Shown one piece after another: positions 45,588 to 53,665 of a DNA stretch of 64,000 nucleotides. The position numbers were made by a program, and so were the translations under genes. The stretch spans positions 1-64,000 of the forward strand of contig CANJCO010000005.1 in the NCBI GenBank assembly GCA_947473045.1, in the 5' to 3' direction. The DNA is from Myxococcales bacterium (lineage in GTDB: Bacteria; Myxococcota_A; Polyangia; Polyangiales; Polyangiaceae). Each line of letters starts with the position of its first letter. The first letter of the stretch is position 1. A model generated the notes under the pieces. That model did no database searches. It saw only the letters and a program-made list of their open reading frames with translations, and was not told the origin of the DNA.

Positions 45588-48500
45588 ATGAGGGTGATGC
45601 GCGTGAGCCTGCCGCGATCCGCCGTGCTCGCCATGGCGACGATAGGCCTCGCGTGCGCCGACGGTGGACGGGGGAGAAACGGCGCTGTCGCCCGGGTTCG
45701 ACCCGCTTCGAGCGACGCGCGGGATGGCCCGGTTTCAAGCGAAGGCGCGCGCTACGTTCCGGTCGCCACGCGGAGCCTCGCGGCCGAGCAGCGCGCCCTC
45801 GTCAGCGGGGTTCGGCTGCGAGGCGGAGCCAGCGGCGGTGTTGAGTCCGCAGGAGATCCCCTGCCCGCTGCGCCGTCGGAAACCGTCGAGCTGCCCCAGC
45901 GCCTGGGGGGCGGATTCCTGTTTCGCATGAACGGGGCGCTCTACCGCGCCGGCGACTGGCTCGCGCCGCTTGAGCCGATCTTCGCCTCGCCGCCGACCAG
46001 CGCGCTCACGCGGGTCATCGTCGGCCTCGACCGCGTGTACGTGCAGCTCGCCGCAGGGGCGCTGATCGGCCTCGATCCGCGCACAGGTTCCGATATCGGA
46101 CTGGGGCCGCTGCCCGCGGGGCCTTCCGTGAACGCGTTCGCGGCGCTCGATGGCTGGCGCGCGCTCGCGAGCGTCGACGCACGCGGACTGCTCGCGACGG
46201 AGGACGCCGGCGCGACGTGGAGCCCCCTCGCTGCTGCCGTCGAGGGGGCCGCACTCACGCGCATCGGAGACCTGATCGCAGCGCGGCCGGCCGATCCGTC
46301 GCGGGGTCCCACGCTGTGGTTCGGAGTGACCTCGGACGGGCACATCGATCGCGCGTCGCCGCCCCCCGCCTCGCAGCAAGCGGTCGGCGAGGCAGACGAC
46401 GACGGGCGACTTGCCGCGTCGACCGGCGGCGGCAGGCCTTTCGGACCGCGCCCGCTCGCCGCCGCGATCGAGGACGGCTGGCCGATGGCGGACGGCACCG
46501 CGTTGATCGCGCGCGACGGAGCGCTCGGGCGCGTGCGGCTGAGCGATGGCGTCGTGACCGGGACGAGCCCCGACGCCTTTGCGCTCACGCCGGCCCGATG
46601 CCACGGCGTTTCGCTAGCCCGTCCGCACGCGCCCCGCGCGTTCGGATTCGTGTGCGGGCAGCCGCACGGACGCACCGATTTGTACGCGTTCGATTCCGGA
46701 CGCGGCGCCCTCGCGTTGCTCAAGCGCTTCGACAACCCGAGACAGGTGAGCGCGTCGGCAAACGGCGGACTCGTCGTGCGGGGCGCGTGCGCCGCGGATG
46801 CGCCGAGCGACGATGCTGCGCCGGGGCAGCAAACCTATTGCGTCCGGGGACCCGACGACGTGTTTCGAGACTTCTACGTTCGCGGCGACATCGGCTCCGA
46901 ACGTGTGGTCGCCCTCGCCGACGGACGAACGGCCGTGGTGTCGCCACCGCAGGGAAATCTCGCCTCGGCGCGCCTTACGCTCTTTGGCTCGGGCGCCGCG
47001 AGCACCGTCGCGGTCACCTTCGATCCCGAGCCCGCCCCGACCACGCCCGACGACCTGCGCGACGCTGAAGCGCTGACGCGCGCGCTGCGCCAGGGCGCAT
47101 GGCTGGGCGGCTTTGAAGAGCGGCGACCCGGCGTGCTCTCAGGCTGGGTGATGAGCGGCAGCACGGCGATCGGCATCGAAATTTCGCTGGACGGCCGAGC
47201 AAAGCACGGGGCGTTCGTGCGCGATCTCGGCGCTCCTGTCGTGTCGGGCGCGTTCGGGATCGGATGGGGCTCGAGGCGCGGCTACGAGACCACCGACGGC
47301 GGAGCGACCTGGCGCCTCGTCGACCTGCCCGAGCCCCTCGCCGCGAGCGCTCAAGGCGAAGGCGTGCGCAGCTGCGGACCGCTCGGCTGCGAAGCGGCGG
47401 GGTGGCTTCGCGTGGGCTGGGGTCAGCGCGCCAGTCACCTGGAAACCTTGCCCGCGAGCCCGATCGCGGCAGCGCCGCCGCCGCAACGACCGCTGGTGCT
47501 GCACTGCAACATCGAGCTCAGCGGCGCTGCCGCCGTCACCGAAGTCGCGCCGACAAGCACGCGCAACTGGTCGTCGTTCTTCAACGTGCAGGCGCCGCAT
47601 CTCGCGGCGGACGAGGCGGCTTACGGACTCGACGGCAGCGCGCTGCTCGAGCGCGGTCGGGGAGACGCCACCGTTCGCGGGCTCGCCCACCTCTACGCGT
47701 GGGGTCCCCGGAGCGCGTCCGACTGGGAAACCCTGGGCCGTGCCGTCGTGCGCTTCGCGTCCCCCTTCGACAGCTCGGCGCGCGTACGCTCGACGCAGCG
47801 AAGCGCCATTCCGCATTTCGTCGCCGACGCCTTCGTACCGACCCTCGCTCAAGCGCGCGCGACCGTCGCGGTGCAATCGGCGGGGCTGGCGTTCAGCGAC
47901 GACGGCGACGAGGCGATCTGGGTCATCCAGCGCTACGGCCCGCGCTCCGAGATGGCGGGCGCCCTGCTGCTGCAAGCCGATCGCCCCATCGTCGAGATTC
48001 GGCGCGCGGACGGCGAATCGCTGCCGAGCGTGGAGGCCGCGGTTCACGTCGGGGAGCGGTGGTACGTGGCCACTGCGGCCGGACCTACGGGGGCCCCGGC
48101 GACGGTGATTTGGGAGCTCGACTCCGGGCTCGCACGCGAACTGGTGCGTCTGCCTCGCGTCGGGCTGGCGCCGACGCCTGGCGCGGTGCGCCTCGCGCGC
48201 GGCGAACGCTCCGGCTCCATCGGGGTGGTGATCGACGGTCAGCCGGGCGCCGCGCGCTATTCGTCGGCGCAGCGCTGGGTCGTTCCGATCGACCTCGCCT
48301 CGGCGACCGCGCGACCACCCGAGCTGCTCGGCAACTTTGATCTCGCGAACGGCGCGACTCCGTGCGGCGCCGACGCGGGCGGCTGGGCGCTCGACACCGC
48401 GTGGAAGAACCCGCTTCAGCTCGACGTGGCGGGCGTGTCGATTCGCGGCGCCGCCACCCTCGCGCGGCTCCACCTGCGACCGGGCACCTCGTGCGTCGAG

Positions 48501-48656
48501 CGCGTCGCGTCGACGGATGGCGCAGGCGAGGAGATCGCCCACGCAGGCCGCTCGCCCGATCGCGCGACCGCGACCACACGGACTGCGCCGGCCGCCGCGA
48601 CCGCCATCACAGTCGTGGGCGACGGCGCCCGCACGCTGCTGCGCTGCGCCCCGTGA
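45588..48656 (+). CDS. large putative lipoprotein with BNR/Asp-box repeats (beta-propeller-like)
   Basis: A 1022-residue exported protein. The N terminus (ATIGLAC, Cys at about 23) fits a lipoprotein signal; an ATG at 45597 is an alternative start. At least two Asp-box motifs are visible, TEDAGATWSPL (about 205-215) and TTDGGATWRLV (about 566-576), the S/T-x-D-x-G-x-T-W hairpins found in sialidase- and sortilin-type beta-propellers. Between them are repeated 'LYAFDSGRG'-like blade strands. No sialidase catalytic Arg triad or Tyr could be placed, so a binding or scaffold role is more likely. It starts six bases after pdxH and ends just before an attenuator-like hairpin region. Confidence 0.6.
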   Translation: MRVMRVSLPRSAVLAMATIGLACADGGRGRNGAVARVRPASSDARDGPVSSEGARYVPVATRSLAAEQRALVSGVRLRGGASGGVESAGDPLPAAPSETVELPQRLGGGFLFRMNGALYRAGDWLAPLEPIFASPPTSALTRVIVGLDRVYVQLAAGALIGLDPRTGSDIGLGPLPAGPSVNAFAALDGWRALASVDARGLLATEDAGATWSPLAAAVEGAALTRIGDLIAARPADPSRGPTLWFGVTSDGHIDRASPPPASQQAVGEADDDGRLAASTGGGRPFGPRPLAAAIEDGWPMADGTALIARDGALGRVRLSDGVVTGTSPDAFALTPARCHGVSLARPHAPRAFGFVCGQPHGRTDLYAFDSGRGALALLKRFDNPRQVSASANGGLVVRGACAADAPSDDAAPGQQTYCVRGPDDVFRDFYVRGDIGSERVVALADGRTAVVSPPQGNLASARLTLFGSGAASTVAVTFDPEPAPTTPDDLRDAEALTRALRQGAWLGGFEERRPGVLSGWVMSGSTAIGIEISLDGRAKHGAFVRDLGAPVVSGAFGIGWGSRRGYETTDGGATWRLVDLPEPLAASAQGEGVRSCGPLGCEAAGWLRVGWGQRASHLETLPASPIAAAPPPQRPLVLHCNIELSGAAAVTEVAPTSTRNWSSFFNVQAPHLAADEAAYGLDGSALLERGRGDATVRGLAHLYAWGPRSASDWETLGRAVVRFASPFDSSARVRSTQRSAIPHFVADAFVPTLAQARATVAVQSAGLAFSDDGDEAIWVIQRYGPRSEMAGALLLQADRPIVEIRRADGESLPSVEAAVHVGERWYVATAAGPTGAPATVIWELDSGLARELVRLPRVGLAPTPGAVRLARGERSGSIGVVIDGQPGAARYSSAQRWVVPIDLASATARPPELLGNFDLANGATPCGADAGGWALDTAWKNPLQLDVAGVSIRGAATLARLHLRPGTSCVERVASTDGAGEEIAHAGRSPDRATATTRTAPAAATAITVVGDGARTLLRCAP

Positions 48657-48874: not shown

Positions 48875-51835
48875 ATGATGGTCGCCATGCGCGCCTGGCC
48901 CCTGTTTCTCTTCGCCGCCCCGATGGTTCTGCGTTGCTCGTCTACGAACACGACGACGACTCCGCAGGCCCTCAATCCCTACGTCGCAGGCGAGCAAGCC
49001 TGTGATCCCGCGTCGAACGCGCAGCGCCGCATCACCTTCGACCCGCCTTTTGTGGTCGTCGGGCCCGGGCAGACGCGACCGGTGCGCATGGTGGTCGATC
49101 CCGACGTGTGCACGCCTCAAACGGTGGTGCTCACCTCGGATGCCGGCGACGTTGCGCAGCCGCCCGCGGCCGCGAAGCTCGACTTTCGCCACGCGAGCTA
49201 CGACTTCATCGTCACCGGCGGAGCGCCCGGCAAGACCCGCCTGACCGCGTCGATGAACAACACGTTCGACGGCTCGACAGTCACCGGCGCGCTGCCCGTC
49301 GACGTGCGCGACGCCTCGCCCGGAACGTGCGCAGTCGCCGACGCGAATCAGGGAATGCTCGACGCGACCCATCCGTCCGTCAGCGGCTCAGGCTCGATCG
49401 CGAGCGCATCGGTGGGCGCGGCTCAGGCTGCGTTCGTGCGCACCGACACCCTTGGTCTGCCCGCATTCGAAGCATCGATCGCGTGCGCGAGCGCCGATCT
49501 CGCGGCTGAATCGGGCCTCGGACTGTCACCGCTGGGACCCGCCGTGAAGTTCGACGCGAACGCCCCCGTAAGCGGCAACGAGGCGCTGCGGCGCGAGATC
49601 GATTTCGCCATTCCGATCAATCCGGCGGCCATCCCGGCAGCCGGACGCATGCGTCACCTCGTGGTGCTGTTCAAGAGCCCCCTCGCACAGAAGGCCCGAC
49701 CGATCACCATCGCCAATCCGCGCGTCGATGCGGCAGGCAGCGGTTATGTGCTGAAATTCCAGTCGCCGTGGTTCGGCACGTATCAAGCGGCGATGGCGAG
49801 CGACGCGGGCACCGTAAAGCGTACGAGGCACCTCACGCACCGGGCGGTCATCGGCTTTTCGATGGGCGGGGGCGGATCGGCGACGTTCGGCGTTCGGCAC
49901 CACGACATGTTCGACGCGATCGCGCCGATGGGCGGTCCGAGCGACTGGACCTGGATGCTCTCGTTTGTCGAAAACTACGCGCTCGGGGGCTTCTGCGCCT
50001 TCGGCAAGACGTGCGCAAAAACGGCTCCGGATCGGTACGTAATGCGAGGCGAGACCTACGCACACTCCGAAGATTTCAACCACTGGTGGTACGAAAAGGG
50101 CAACGGCAACGGCGGCTCGTTCGGTCGCGACGAGTACACGCAAATCTTCGAGGACCTCGCGCTGATGCGGGGCAATCCGAACGGCCAAAACGCAGCGCTC
50201 CCCTCGTTCGCAAGCGGGCCGATGCCCAGCGATCCGTGGGTCAACGGCAAGCTCGACACCGACGGCAAGCTCTGCAGCGTGACGGTCGACCCGATCAGCA
50301 AAGAGCCCAACGAGGTCGCGCAGAAGCAGATTCAGGACAAGTGCAACAAGGCGCGCTGCGATCCGGCAAACGCGTTCAAAGTGCCGACCGGTTATTACGA
50401 CGACGAGTACAACCCGACCGGCTCGGAGCAGGTCATCAGCTTTTGCGACGGCGCGCGCGTCGGAGAGAGCGCGAGCCCCTACGAGGACACGTGGGTGTCG
50501 CCCGGCGTCGGTGGCGGCATGCCGATGAGCCTCGCGCTCGCGGTCGACCTCAACAAAAACGGGATGCGAGACGAAGACGAACCCGTCATTCGCAGCGGCC
50601 ACGAGCCCTTCGACGACGTTGGCACCGACGGCAAAGCGGACATCGATGAGCCCGGATACGACCCGCTCAAAAACCCCGACCCCAATCAGGACAACTACAA
50701 CTTTCAGCTGAACCCGACCGGCACGGAAGGCGATCACCGCTACGACCTCGGTGAGCCCTTCAAAGACGTCGGACTCGACGGGGTCGCGAACACGAAGACG
50801 TCGCCGTACGACTTCGGCGAGGGCGACGGCCAATACACGCAGACCAGCGGCCGCGCCGCCTTCGAGCAGAGCGATCCGCACGCGCTCATTCGCGGCTGGT
50901 CGACCGACACACCGGGCGGCCCCCTCGACGACAACGCGATCGCGCGGCTCGACGCATGGACCGACGGCGGCGTGCGCGACCTGTTCAATTTCGCCGCGGT
51001 CGCCAACCACTTCACCGGCGCGTACGCGTCGCGCAAATGGCCGAACGGCCGGCAGATTCACTCGACTGCATTCTACAACAACTTCGAGTGGCTGCCCGGT
51101 CAGGAGGGCCCCGACGGCGTGTCGCGCGTAGGCCCGAACGACTACGTCGCGTCGAACGTGCGCTGGGCCGACGTGGCCTCCGTGCCGAGCCTGCGCTACG
51201 GCACCGTGGACGCCACGCCCGCGCAGATCGAGGCGGGCGACGGACAGCACGTCGGAACCGCCGCGCAGCTGCTCTACCGACTCGAGACTGCGTTTTATTA
51301 CGCCGCGCAGCGATGGCCCGATGCCGACAGGCTGCTGTCGGAGAAGGCCATCCTGAATCCGGCGACGACCACGAAAAACGAGCTCGGCCTCGAGTGCGAA
51401 GCCAATGGCCGTTGCGAGAAGATTTTCACCGGCCCGAAGACCGGCCGAACCGGTCCCGTGGCGATCACCCTGCCGCCGGGCTACGCCAACGAAGACTCAC
51501 GCAAGCGCGACGTGCGCTACCCCGTCGTGTTCGTGCTGCACGGCTACGGGCAGGATCCGCGGGACCTCGAGGCCGTCGCGCTGATCAGCAACAACTTCAT
51601 GAACGACGGCAACCACAGCTACGTCACGCGGCTGCCCAAGTTCATCACCGTGTATGTCGACGGCCGCTGCCGCATCGGCAAAAATGGGCTGCCCGAGTGC
51701 ATTCGCGGGACGTTCTACTTGAACTCGACGCGGCAGGACGGCCCGCAGCTCGACGCGTGGTTCGACGAAGTTGTACAATACATCGATCAGAACTACCGGA
51801 CGATGGGCCCGAGCGACGTCGAGGTCATCGAGTAG
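48875..51835 (+). CDS. putative secreted esterase with circularly permuted alpha/beta-hydrolase motifs and calcium-loop repeats
   Basis: A 986-residue exported protein; ATGs at 48875, 48878 and 48887 are possible, and the N terminus is hydrophobic, ending at VLRCSS (poor lipobox, Arg before Cys). Residues 30-310 are beta-rich and unassigned. The nucleophile elbow AVIGFSMGGGGS (Ser329) with DMFDAIAPMGG follows. About 560-680 holds calcium-type loops (DLNKNGMRDEDE) and two EPF.DVG.DG repeats. Near the C terminus comes PVVFVLHGYGQDP (882-895), then ITVYVDGRC, FYLNS and YIDQNYRT. In ordinary esterase-D-like enzymes the HGYG part comes before GFSMGG; here the order is reversed. Triad Asp and His could not be placed. 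Confidence 0.7.
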   Translation: MMVAMRAWPLFLFAAPMVLRCSSTNTTTTPQALNPYVAGEQACDPASNAQRRITFDPPFVVVGPGQTRPVRMVVDPDVCTPQTVVLTSDAGDVAQPPAAAKLDFRHASYDFIVTGGAPGKTRLTASMNNTFDGSTVTGALPVDVRDASPGTCAVADANQGMLDATHPSVSGSGSIASASVGAAQAAFVRTDTLGLPAFEASIACASADLAAESGLGLSPLGPAVKFDANAPVSGNEALRREIDFAIPINPAAIPAAGRMRHLVVLFKSPLAQKARPITIANPRVDAAGSGYVLKFQSPWFGTYQAAMASDAGTVKRTRHLTHRAVIGFSMGGGGSATFGVRHHDMFDAIAPMGGPSDWTWMLSFVENYALGGFCAFGKTCAKTAPDRYVMRGETYAHSEDFNHWWYEKGNGNGGSFGRDEYTQIFEDLALMRGNPNGQNAALPSFASGPMPSDPWVNGKLDTDGKLCSVTVDPISKEPNEVAQKQIQDKCNKARCDPANAFKVPTGYYDDEYNPTGSEQVISFCDGARVGESASPYEDTWVSPGVGGGMPMSLALAVDLNKNGMRDEDEPVIRSGHEPFDDVGTDGKADIDEPGYDPLKNPDPNQDNYNFQLNPTGTEGDHRYDLGEPFKDVGLDGVANTKTSPYDFGEGDGQYTQTSGRAAFEQSDPHALIRGWSTDTPGGPLDDNAIARLDAWTDGGVRDLFNFAAVANHFTGAYASRKWPNGRQIHSTAFYNNFEWLPGQEGPDGVSRVGPNDYVASNVRWADVASVPSLRYGTVDATPAQIEAGDGQHVGTAAQLLYRLETAFYYAAQRWPDADRLLSEKAILNPATTTKNELGLECEANGRCEKIFTGPKTGRTGPVAITLPPGYANEDSRKRDVRYPVVFVLHGYGQDPRDLEAVALISNNFMNDGNHSYVTRLPKFITVYVDGRCRIGKNGLPECIRGTFYLNSTRQDGPQLDAWFDEVVQYIDQNYRTMGPSDVEVIE

Positions 51836-51838
51836 CGG

Positions 51839-53665
51839 TCAAGGCTGTAGTCCGCGCGCGCGCAGCACGTCGGTGACGAGCGCCCGCGGCTCGCCCGGGA
51901 GCGACGGGAGCGCGGCCCGGGCCGCCTCGACGAAACGGGCGCCGCGGGAGCGCTTGAGGGCCTCGGCGGCTGCCGCGCGGTCGACAGGCGCCGCATGCTG
52001 CAGCACGCCCAGCAGCAGCTCCGCGGCCTCCTGCGTGTCGACGCGAGCTAAGGCACGCAGCGCAGCGGCTCGCACGCGCGCCTGAGGGGCCTCGCGCACG
52101 ACCCGCGCGAGCGGATCGAACGCGTGCGGGAACGCCAGCTCTTCGATCGCGACCGCGGCCTGCTCCACGACGGCCCCGGACTCATGGCGAAGCCCGTGAC
52201 GGACGGTGACAAACGTGCGCTTGAAAAACAGCCCTTTGAGCGCCGCAAGGACCGCGATTTTCACCTCGACTTCGGGGCGACCAAACAGCGCCTCGAGCGG
52301 CGACAAGGCCGAATAAAGCTGCAGCTGCGCGAGCTGGTCGGCGAGCTGAACCGCCGCGTGCGTTACGGCCGGCGAGCCCGGGGCAGCGCCTTCAACGCCG
52401 AGCGCAGTCAGGCGCGCGAGCATCGCCTTGCGCCGCACGAGGTCGGGCCACCGGCGATCGAGCAGCACGTCCGCGCAGGCTTCGGCGGCCGACCCGCGCT
52501 GCTCCCATTCGAGCACGTCGACATGCCACACGTCGGGGAACTGATTGTCGTGGCGCAGGTGCGCCGGCAGCGGCGCGGCCGTCGCGGGCTCATCGCTGAC
52601 GCCCTCGTAACGCTTCGCCGCGCGGACGTAGTGCTTCGCGCGCCCGGGCTCGAGTCCGAGGGCGCCGAGCTCGCGATAAACCAGCCCGACGCGCGAGAAC
52701 TGCCCCACCTCGACGAACGCGAGAATCGCTGAAAGAAGAGCGTTTTCAGCGATTTCGGGAGGCGCGCCGCGCTCGAGATGTTGCCGCGCAACGTCCCGCC
52801 ACAGCTCGGCTTGCATCAGCGTGTAATGCGCGCCAAGCGGCGCCATTCCAATCGCGCGCGCGAATTCAGCCGCCTCGCGCGCGAGGGTCGCGGCCGCACT
52901 TAGCTCACGCGCCTCCCGCGCTGCGGACAGCGCCTCCTCGTAGTAGTGAAGCGCGAAATATTTGAGCTGGTCTTCCCGCAAAATTCGGATGGCGTTGACG
53001 AAGCCCTCGAGCACATCCTCGAACATGCCGCCTTCGCGACCGATTTGAACAAGCACTTGAAAGCAGTCGAACGCGCGCTCACGCAGGCCCGTGCTCTCGA
53101 AGTGGTCGGCCGCCTCCTCGATGAGCCGCACCGCCACGACGAGCGCGTCGCGCGCGTGCCGATCGTCGCCGCATTTCTTCGCGCAGCGCGAGACGTTCAG
53201 ATGCACGAGCCCCGCCTGGTAGGCCTCCGCGCCCCCCGCAGGCCCCTGTGCGAGACGCGACCACAGGGCGCGCGCCCCAGCCCAGTCCTGCGCATTTTCC
53301 CTGTAAATGGCCGCGGCTGCCGTGAGCCCCGCGCGCTCCATCTCGGCTCCGGCCTCGGCGACGTCGCCTGCGGCGGCGAGGGTGCGCGCGCGATCGACGT
53401 GCGGCGCCTGGGCCGCGCGCGAGCGGACGCGACGAAAGCCGTCATCGTCCGAAAACGCAGTGTACCACGCGACCGTAAGCGCTCCGCGAGCGTCACCTTT
53501 GCGGGCGAGCGCATCTTCGAGCGGCCTTAAAACGGCGACGTAATCGCCTTCTGCAACGTGGGTTTGCTGCGCGGCCGCGACCAGCAGGCGGGAGGCCTCG
53601 TCGAAGTCGCTCCGGGCCGCCGCCTGACGCGCGCGCTCACGCAGGGAGTAGAGGTCGTCGAGCAC
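51839..53665 (-). CDS. TPR and HEAT-repeat protein
   Basis: A 608-residue all-helical cytoplasmic protein. Residues 1-390 are tetratricopeptide-like pairs (for example REDQLKYFALHYYEEALSAA), and about 440-600 are HEAT/ARM-like repeats (AVLAALKGLFFKRTFVTVRHGL, RVRAAALRALARVDTQEAAELL). There is no enzyme motif. It should be a scaffold or an adaptor. Similar proteins occur in myxobacteria near surface and motility loci, but nothing here points to a partner. It is the last gene of a unit with slyD (15-base gap) and the aconitase-family gene. Confidence 0.7.
   Translation of the reverse strand: MLDDLYSLRERARQAAARSDFDEASRLLVAAAQQTHVAEGDYVAVLRPLEDALARKGDARGALTVAWYTAFSDDDGFRRVRSRAAQAPHVDRARTLAAAGDVAEAGAEMERAGLTAAAAIYRENAQDWAGARALWSRLAQGPAGGAEAYQAGLVHLNVSRCAKKCGDDRHARDALVVAVRLIEEAADHFESTGLRERAFDCFQVLVQIGREGGMFEDVLEGFVNAIRILREDQLKYFALHYYEEALSAAREARELSAAATLAREAAEFARAIGMAPLGAHYTLMQAELWRDVARQHLERGAPPEIAENALLSAILAFVEVGQFSRVGLVYRELGALGLEPGRAKHYVRAAKRYEGVSDEPATAAPLPAHLRHDNQFPDVWHVDVLEWEQRGSAAEACADVLLDRRWPDLVRRKAMLARLTALGVEGAAPGSPAVTHAAVQLADQLAQLQLYSALSPLEALFGRPEVEVKIAVLAALKGLFFKRTFVTVRHGLRHESGAVVEQAAVAIEELAFPHAFDPLARVVREAPQARVRAAALRALARVDTQEAAELLLGVLQHAAPVDRAAAAEALKRSRGARFVEAARAALPSLPGEPRALVTDVLRARGLQP

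What the first reader, a model, noticed from the sequence alone, without database searches (positions are those of the whole stretch)
48875..51835. Circularly permuted esterase with calcium-loop repeats inserted at the old termini
The nucleophile elbow (Ser329, GFSMGG) comes about 550 residues before the strand-oxyanion block (HGYG at 889-892) and the YIDQNYRT helix that normally leads into it. The natural order is HGYG, then YxDxNYRT, then GLSMGG. The chain thus ends where an ordinary enzyme would continue into its nucleophile strand. The middle holds EF-hand-like DLNKNGMRDEDE and two EPF.DVG.DG repeats, perhaps a calcium switch that brings the halves together. I do not know a described family with this plan; it is the best candidate here for something new.
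Basis: partly seen in the sequence, partly recalled or inferred. Interest (0 to 1): 0.68.

Follow-up and report, generated by a model that had tools for sequence, protein, structure and literature searches.

The report
Circularly permuted calcium-cap esterase family
A secreted bacterial lipoprotein whose esterase domain is wired in rotated order, conserved across a whole phylum of myxobacteria-like organisms; the same rotation is known in one other enzyme family but appears to have arisen separately here.

Summary
The ORF at 48875-51835 (986 aa) has its nucleophile elbow (S329) before the oxyanion strand (HGYG, 889-892) and the YIDQNYRT helix that ends the chain. Relatives were found in 104 of 379 genomes sampled across the phylum. 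Every homologue I read with both motifs keeps the rotated order and stops about ten residues after YRT. S329, D702, H792 and H889 are invariant in 35 aligned homologues.

Putting the C-terminal block back in front restores a colinear match to ordinary PF00756/CE1 (feruloyl-esterase-like) enzymes. Best single-domain score rises from 45.6 to 76.8 bits on average, in 35 of 35 proteins; HHalign goes from 115 to 242 aligned columns.

The calcium-type loops sit in a ~330-residue cap between the nucleophile and Asp regions, not at the old termini, which are joined by a variable linker (~823-857). And the plan has a precedent: type-2 extracellular PHB depolymerases (PDB 2D80) also run Ser-Asp-His-oxyanion. 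The family scores near zero against 2D80, so its rotation looks independent.

Likely function: outer-surface lipoprotein esterase, substrate unknown. Activity and calcium dependence are inferred. Both AlphaFold runs failed (mean pLDDT 30 and 29).

The parts
48875..51835 (+). ORF of the permuted esterase, 986 aa (the start is more likely M5 at 48887, where homology to the nearest relative begins)
48887..48937 (+). signal peptide ending at the lipobox-like Cys21 (lipoprotein)
   Evidence: C21 is 90% or more conserved at the end of a hydrophobic leader in 35 homologues
49010..49318 (+). residues 46-148, Ig-like accessory domain, absent from more distant members
   Evidence: one homologue matches Pfam Big_2
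49319..49819 (+). residues 149-315, pre-nucleophile region, missing or much shorter in the most distant members
   Evidence: no similarity to the oxyanion half
49820..49939 (+). residues 316-355, nucleophile strand and elbow GFSMGG with catalytic Ser329, then the following strand
   Evidence: Ser329 invariant 35/35; PF00756 profile 116-156
49940..50944 (+). residues 356-690, cap inserted between the nucleophile and Asp regions
   Evidence: position relative to canonical relatives
50525..50839 (+). residues 551-655, calcium-type loop cassette (DLNKNGMRDEDE 558-569; DVGTDGKADIDE 581-592; DVGLDG from 631); most conserved region, 24 invariant residues
50978..50980 (+). Asp702 of DGGxRD, inferred catalytic Asp (aligned to D.G..D of canonical relatives)
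   Evidence: invariant 35/35; profile alignment
51248..51250 (+). His792 of GDGxHVG, inferred catalytic His
   Evidence: invariant 35/35
51341..51445 (+). residues 823-857, variable linker joining the former C- and N-termini
   Evidence: no invariant column
51446..51556 (+). residues 858-894, former N-terminal strands and oxyanion loop HGYG (51539-51550)
   Evidence: 10 invariant residues in 858-895
51557..51832 (+). residues 895-986, down to helix YIDQNYRT (51779-51802) and the conserved chain end
45588..48656 (+). co-directional upstream ORF (1022 aa, two Asp-box/BNR motifs, lipoprotein-like start), conserved next to the esterase gene in close relatives; possible operon partner

Best explanation
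This is a member of an undescribed, phylum-wide family of secreted lipoprotein esterases of the PF00756 / carbohydrate-esterase-1 type. Its alpha/beta-hydrolase domain is circularly permuted: the old C- and N-termini are joined by a variable linker, and the chain is opened between the helix that ends in YRT and the nucleophile strand. After export and lipidation at Cys21 (inferred), the C-terminal block (strands, HGYG oxyanion loop, YRT helix) packs against the N-terminal block to rebuild an ordinary active site, Ser329-Asp702-His792 with the HGYG loop completing the oxyanion hole (inferred from homology). A roughly 330-residue cap between the nucleophile and Asp regions carries EF-hand-like loops that probably bind calcium to keep the cap folded. 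The substrate is unknown; a polysaccharide or polymer ester is the likeliest guess from CE1 relatives. Shown by sequence: order, conservation, homology and cap position. Inferred: fold packing, activity, calcium binding, location. The permutation appears independent of the one in type-2 PHB depolymerases.
For: The native chain matches PF00756 only at profile 116-156 (24.8 bits); the re-ordered chain matches 4-157 in one stretch at 31.3 bits, or 32.7 with most of the cap removed. The native-order profile hits 8z91 and 7xrt as two separate pieces; the re-ordered profile hits both in a single colinear piece, 64.6 and 64.8 bits. Of all six orders of the three core blocks, only oxyanion-nucleophile-Asp/His gives the full span (mean 76.8 bits, 204 profile positions; native 45.6 bits, 113 positions), better in 35 of 35 proteins. 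HHalign: score 229, 242 columns re-ordered against score 140, 115 columns native. S329, D702, H792 and H889 are invariant in 35 sequences. The order and chain end are conserved across the phylum. The type-1/type-2 PHB depolymerase pair behaves the same way as a positive control.
Against: The canonical comparison set was partly chosen with the re-ordered profile, which favours it; the Pfam and PDB tests do not have that bias, but the Pfam gain is modest (6.5-8 bits). The match to canonical enzymes is weak after the cap, and the segment around His792 lies beyond the HHalign match, so His792 rests on order, motif and invariance. No assay or metal data exist. The lipobox of this member (VLRC) is atypical.
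Confidence: 0.82

Rival explanations
1. It is a member, or close sister, of the type-2 extracellular PHB depolymerases, which already have this rotated plan, and so shares their permutation event.
For: Same order Ser-Asp-His-oxyanion and, as judged from the 2D80 sequence, the same opening just before the nucleophile strand.
Against: The family profile scores 2.7-3.2 bits on 2D80 in either order, against 27-73 bits on canonical PF00756 enzymes. None of 35 members matches NF050059 (type 2) while 34 match PF00756 and 28 match the XynZ feruloyl esterase model. HHalign native order against 2D80: probability 0.8%. No genome of 189 sampled in the phylum has a type-2 enzyme over the cut-off.
Confidence: 0.04
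2. There is no reconstituted hydrolase within one chain: the protein is a chain of two half-domains from separate sources, or the halves pair between two molecules (domain swap).
For: The two blocks lie about 550 residues apart, and no structure could be predicted.
Against: Both blocks match complementary, non-overlapping parts of the same family profile (4-113 and 116-157), and both are conserved together in every homologue examined. A domain-swapped dimer is not excluded by sequence.
Confidence: 0.08
3. It folds as a permuted hydrolase but is a non-catalytic binding or structural surface protein.
For: The calcium-type cassette is more conserved than the catalytic blocks, and it also occurs without the esterase in a Nitrospirota pilin-like protein.
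Against: Ser329, Asp702, His792 and the HGYG histidine are invariant in 35 proteins down to about 30% identity, which is not expected after loss of catalysis.
Confidence: 0.1
4. Calcium acts as a switch that brings the two halves together.
For: Strongly conserved EF-type loops.
Against: The loops lie in the cap, not at the joint or at the new termini; secreted enzymes commonly use calcium simply for stability (general knowledge). No titration data.
Confidence: 0.1

Closest known systems
PF00756 putative esterase / CE1 feruloyl esterases (PDB 7xrt, 8z91, 1jjf XynZ)
   Same: Same sequence family once the blocks are re-ordered: PPGY strand, HGxG oxyanion loop, YRT helix, GxSMGG elbow, D.G..D and G.H motifs.
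   Different: Blocks are in rotated order; a ~330-residue cap with calcium-type loops; lipoprotein anchor and extra N-terminal domains.
Type-2 catalytic domain of extracellular short-chain PHB depolymerases (NF050059; PDB 2D80/2D81)
   Same: Same rotated plan, Ser-Asp-His then oxyanion, chain opening before the nucleophile strand (PMC2666664).
   Different: No detectable sequence relationship in either order; 2D80 is 318 aa and lacks the cap cassette; it is closest to type-1 PHB depolymerases, not PF00756.
Alpha/beta hydrolases with permuted and reversed strands 1 and 2 (SE_1780 pdb 3fle, Pseudomonas lipase 2z8x and others; PMC11878206)
   Same: Topological rearrangement within the superfamily.
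   Different: There only the two edge strands move and run backwards; here half the sheet changes place in the chain.
Calcium-type cassette in a pilin-like protein of Candidatus Manganitrophus plasmids (WDT82760.1)
   Same: Shares EPGYDP..PDPNQDNY...P.GTEGN.R.D.GEP (54.8 bits).
   Different: No esterase; protein starts with a pilin-like hydrophobic segment and is encoded near pilM.

Membership tests
PF00756 / CE1-type esterase | Pfam gathering score reached | tested here: met
   24.8 bits native, 31.3 re-ordered, cut-off 22; 34 of 35 homologues match at E 0.01 or better
PF00756 / CE1-type esterase | Colinear match from strand 1 through the nucleophile in chain order | tested here: not met
   Native order matches in separate pieces; only the rotated order is colinear. 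So it is a rotated relative, not an ordinary member
PF00756 / CE1-type esterase | Ser-Asp-His triad and oxyanion HGxG | tested here: met
   S329, D702, H792, H889 and G890 invariant in 35; D702 assigned by profile alignment, H792 by motif and order
PF00756 / CE1-type esterase | Esterase activity | not testable with these tools
   Needs an assay
Type-2 PHB depolymerase (NF050059) | Oxyanion motif C-terminal to the triad | tested here: met
   definition from PMC2666664
Type-2 PHB depolymerase (NF050059) | Match to the family model | tested here: not met
   0 of 35 members at E 0.1; 2.7-3.2 bits against 2D80
EF-hand-like calcium-binding loops | 12-residue D.x.[DNG].x.[DN]G.....E loop | tested here: met
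   Two full loops in this protein; 1.94 per homologue against 0.059 by chance
EF-hand-like calcium-binding loops | Calcium bound | not testable with these tools
   No structure or titration
Bacterial lipoprotein | Signal peptide with lipobox Cys | tested here: inconclusive
   C21 conserved in 90% or more, but this member has VLRC, an atypical lipobox

The most novel reading that the evidence does not exclude
A second, independent natural circular permutation of the alpha/beta-hydrolase fold at essentially the same site as in type-2 PHB depolymerases, fixed early in a phylum and combined with a mobile calcium cassette that gates or licenses assembly of the active site outside the cell.
Probability: 0.15. 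Interest if true: 0.75.

Novelty: new variant of a known kind. Interest (0 to 1): 0.55.

Why it matters
Natural circular permutations of the alpha/beta-hydrolase fold that move half the sheet are rarely described. Here is one held across a whole phylum, with ordinary-order relatives in some of the same genomes. If the rotation really arose separately from that of type-2 PHB depolymerases at the same break point, it says that this point in the fold tolerates new termini, which is useful to enzyme engineers and testable. It also gives annotators a reason why profile searches see only half of these enzymes at a time.

Tried and rejected
Viral contigs held no relative. A duplication remnant was sought by comparing region 149-315 with the oxyanion half: no similarity. 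Shared ancestry with type-2 PHB depolymerases: rejected by profile scores. A strain-specific rearrangement or assembly error: rejected by phylum-wide conservation. Occurrence outside the phylum could not be surveyed properly: the single genome-contig scan used exact peptides of one protein and returned only two close relatives; the plasmid search found only the calcium cassette. Literature searches for a described permuted feruloyl or CE1 esterase found none in the held library, which lacks most subscription journals.

Full report
What was checked. Homology to the closest relative suggests that translation starts at M5 (48887).

Is it general? A search with the protein gave matches in 131 of 290 genomes of the class, many full-length. 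A profile search gave 104 of 379 genomes across the phylum at E 1e-10 or better. In homologues extracted from these genomes, wherever both motifs are present the nucleophile comes first, HGYG comes late, and the chain stops about ten residues after YRT. Two named relatives are 'Myxococcales bacterium' genomes, so the phylum is Myxococcota (inference from those titles). The rotation is therefore an old, fixed property of a family, not an accident of this strain.

Anatomy. The alignment of 35 homologues shows, in chain order: a leader ending in a conserved Cys; an Ig-like domain that distant members lack; a pre-nucleophile region that the most distant members also lack; the nucleophile block; a cap of about 330 residues; the block with D702 and H792; a variable linker; and the oxyanion block to the end. 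S329, D702, H792 and H889 are invariant. The 551-655 cassette is the most conserved region, with 24 invariant residues; the linker 823-857 has none.

Test of the rotation. (a) Pfam: the native chain matches PF00756 only over profile 116-156 with 24.8 bits. Moving 846-986 to the front gives one match over 4-157 with 31.3 bits, 32.7 without most of the cap; the C-terminal block alone matches 4-113. (b) PDB profiles: the native-order profile hits esterases 8z91 and 7xrt in two pieces, the re-ordered one in a single piece of about 64.7 bits. (c) Block orders: with a profile of 20 canonical esterases from these genomes, mean best-domain scores are 45.6 bits native and 76.8 in the order oxyanion-nucleophile-Asp/His, better in 35 of 35; the only other order that scores well (72.6) keeps the oxyanion-nucleophile join but loses span, 155 against 204 positions. 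(d) HHalign: 242 aligned columns, score 229, against 115 columns, score 140; the alignment pairs DGGVRD with the D.G..D motif of canonical enzymes. The canonical set in (c) and (d) was partly selected with the re-ordered profile, so (a) and (b) carry the independent weight.

Where the calcium loops are. They lie between the nucleophile strands and D702, where many alpha/beta hydrolases carry a cap after strand 6 (PMC11878206). They are not at the old termini. Two loops match the full 12-residue EF pattern, and the family averages 1.94 against 0.059 in shuffled sequences. The same cassette occurs, without an esterase, in a pilin-like protein near pilM on a Candidatus Manganitrophus plasmid, so it looks like a module in its own right. 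Calcium binding itself is inferred.

What is known. Type-2 catalytic domains of extracellular PHB depolymerases have the oxyanion hole C-terminal to the triad (PMC2666664). I recalled the sequence of the Penicillium funiculosum enzyme; a search showed it identical to 2d80_A. As a control, a type-1 profile matches native 2D80 in pieces (52.9 and 29.4 bits) and re-ordered 2D80 in one (87.9 bits), so the test detects a known permutation. The present family does not match 2D80 in either order (2.7-3.2 bits) but matches canonical PF00756 enzymes at up to 73 bits, and no member matches the type-2 model. The two rotations therefore look separate, at about the same place in the fold. I found no described permuted PF00756 or CE1 family in the papers searched.

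Function. By homology the enzyme should hydrolyse esters outside the cell, tethered by a lipid. The substrate is not indicated. In the closest lineages the gene follows a co-directional gene for a BNR-type lipoprotein (29-43% identity to the window copy, 10 loci including the window); the association is lost further away, so it is a weak clue.

Limits. Both structure predictions failed, so intramolecular packing of the halves is inferred. Activity, calcium binding and cellular location are untested. Spread beyond the phylum was not surveyed.

Noticed in passing
45588-48656 (+): Co-directional 1022-aa lipoprotein-like ORF with two Asp-box (BNR) motifs, found next to the permuted esterase gene in 10 loci of the closest lineages. 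Possible functional partner.
   Followed up: partly
L201:3105-3833 (CP114562.1, Candidatus Manganitrophus plasmid): Pilin-like protein near pilM carries the same calcium-type cassette as the esterase cap (54.8 bits), so the cassette seems to be a mobile module.
   Followed up: partly
L099 (G544:C446), 593-aa ORF on the - strand: A short, divergent permuted member with cassette, YMDAGTTD and YDGGHVG motifs but almost nothing before the nucleophile; a candidate minimal version.
   Followed up: partly
51839-53665 (-): HEAT-repeat ORF ends three bases from the esterase stop codon, tail to tail.
   Followed up: no
48875-48887: The first ATG of the ORF is probably not the start; the nearest relative aligns from the MRAWPL motif at M5.
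   Followed up: partly
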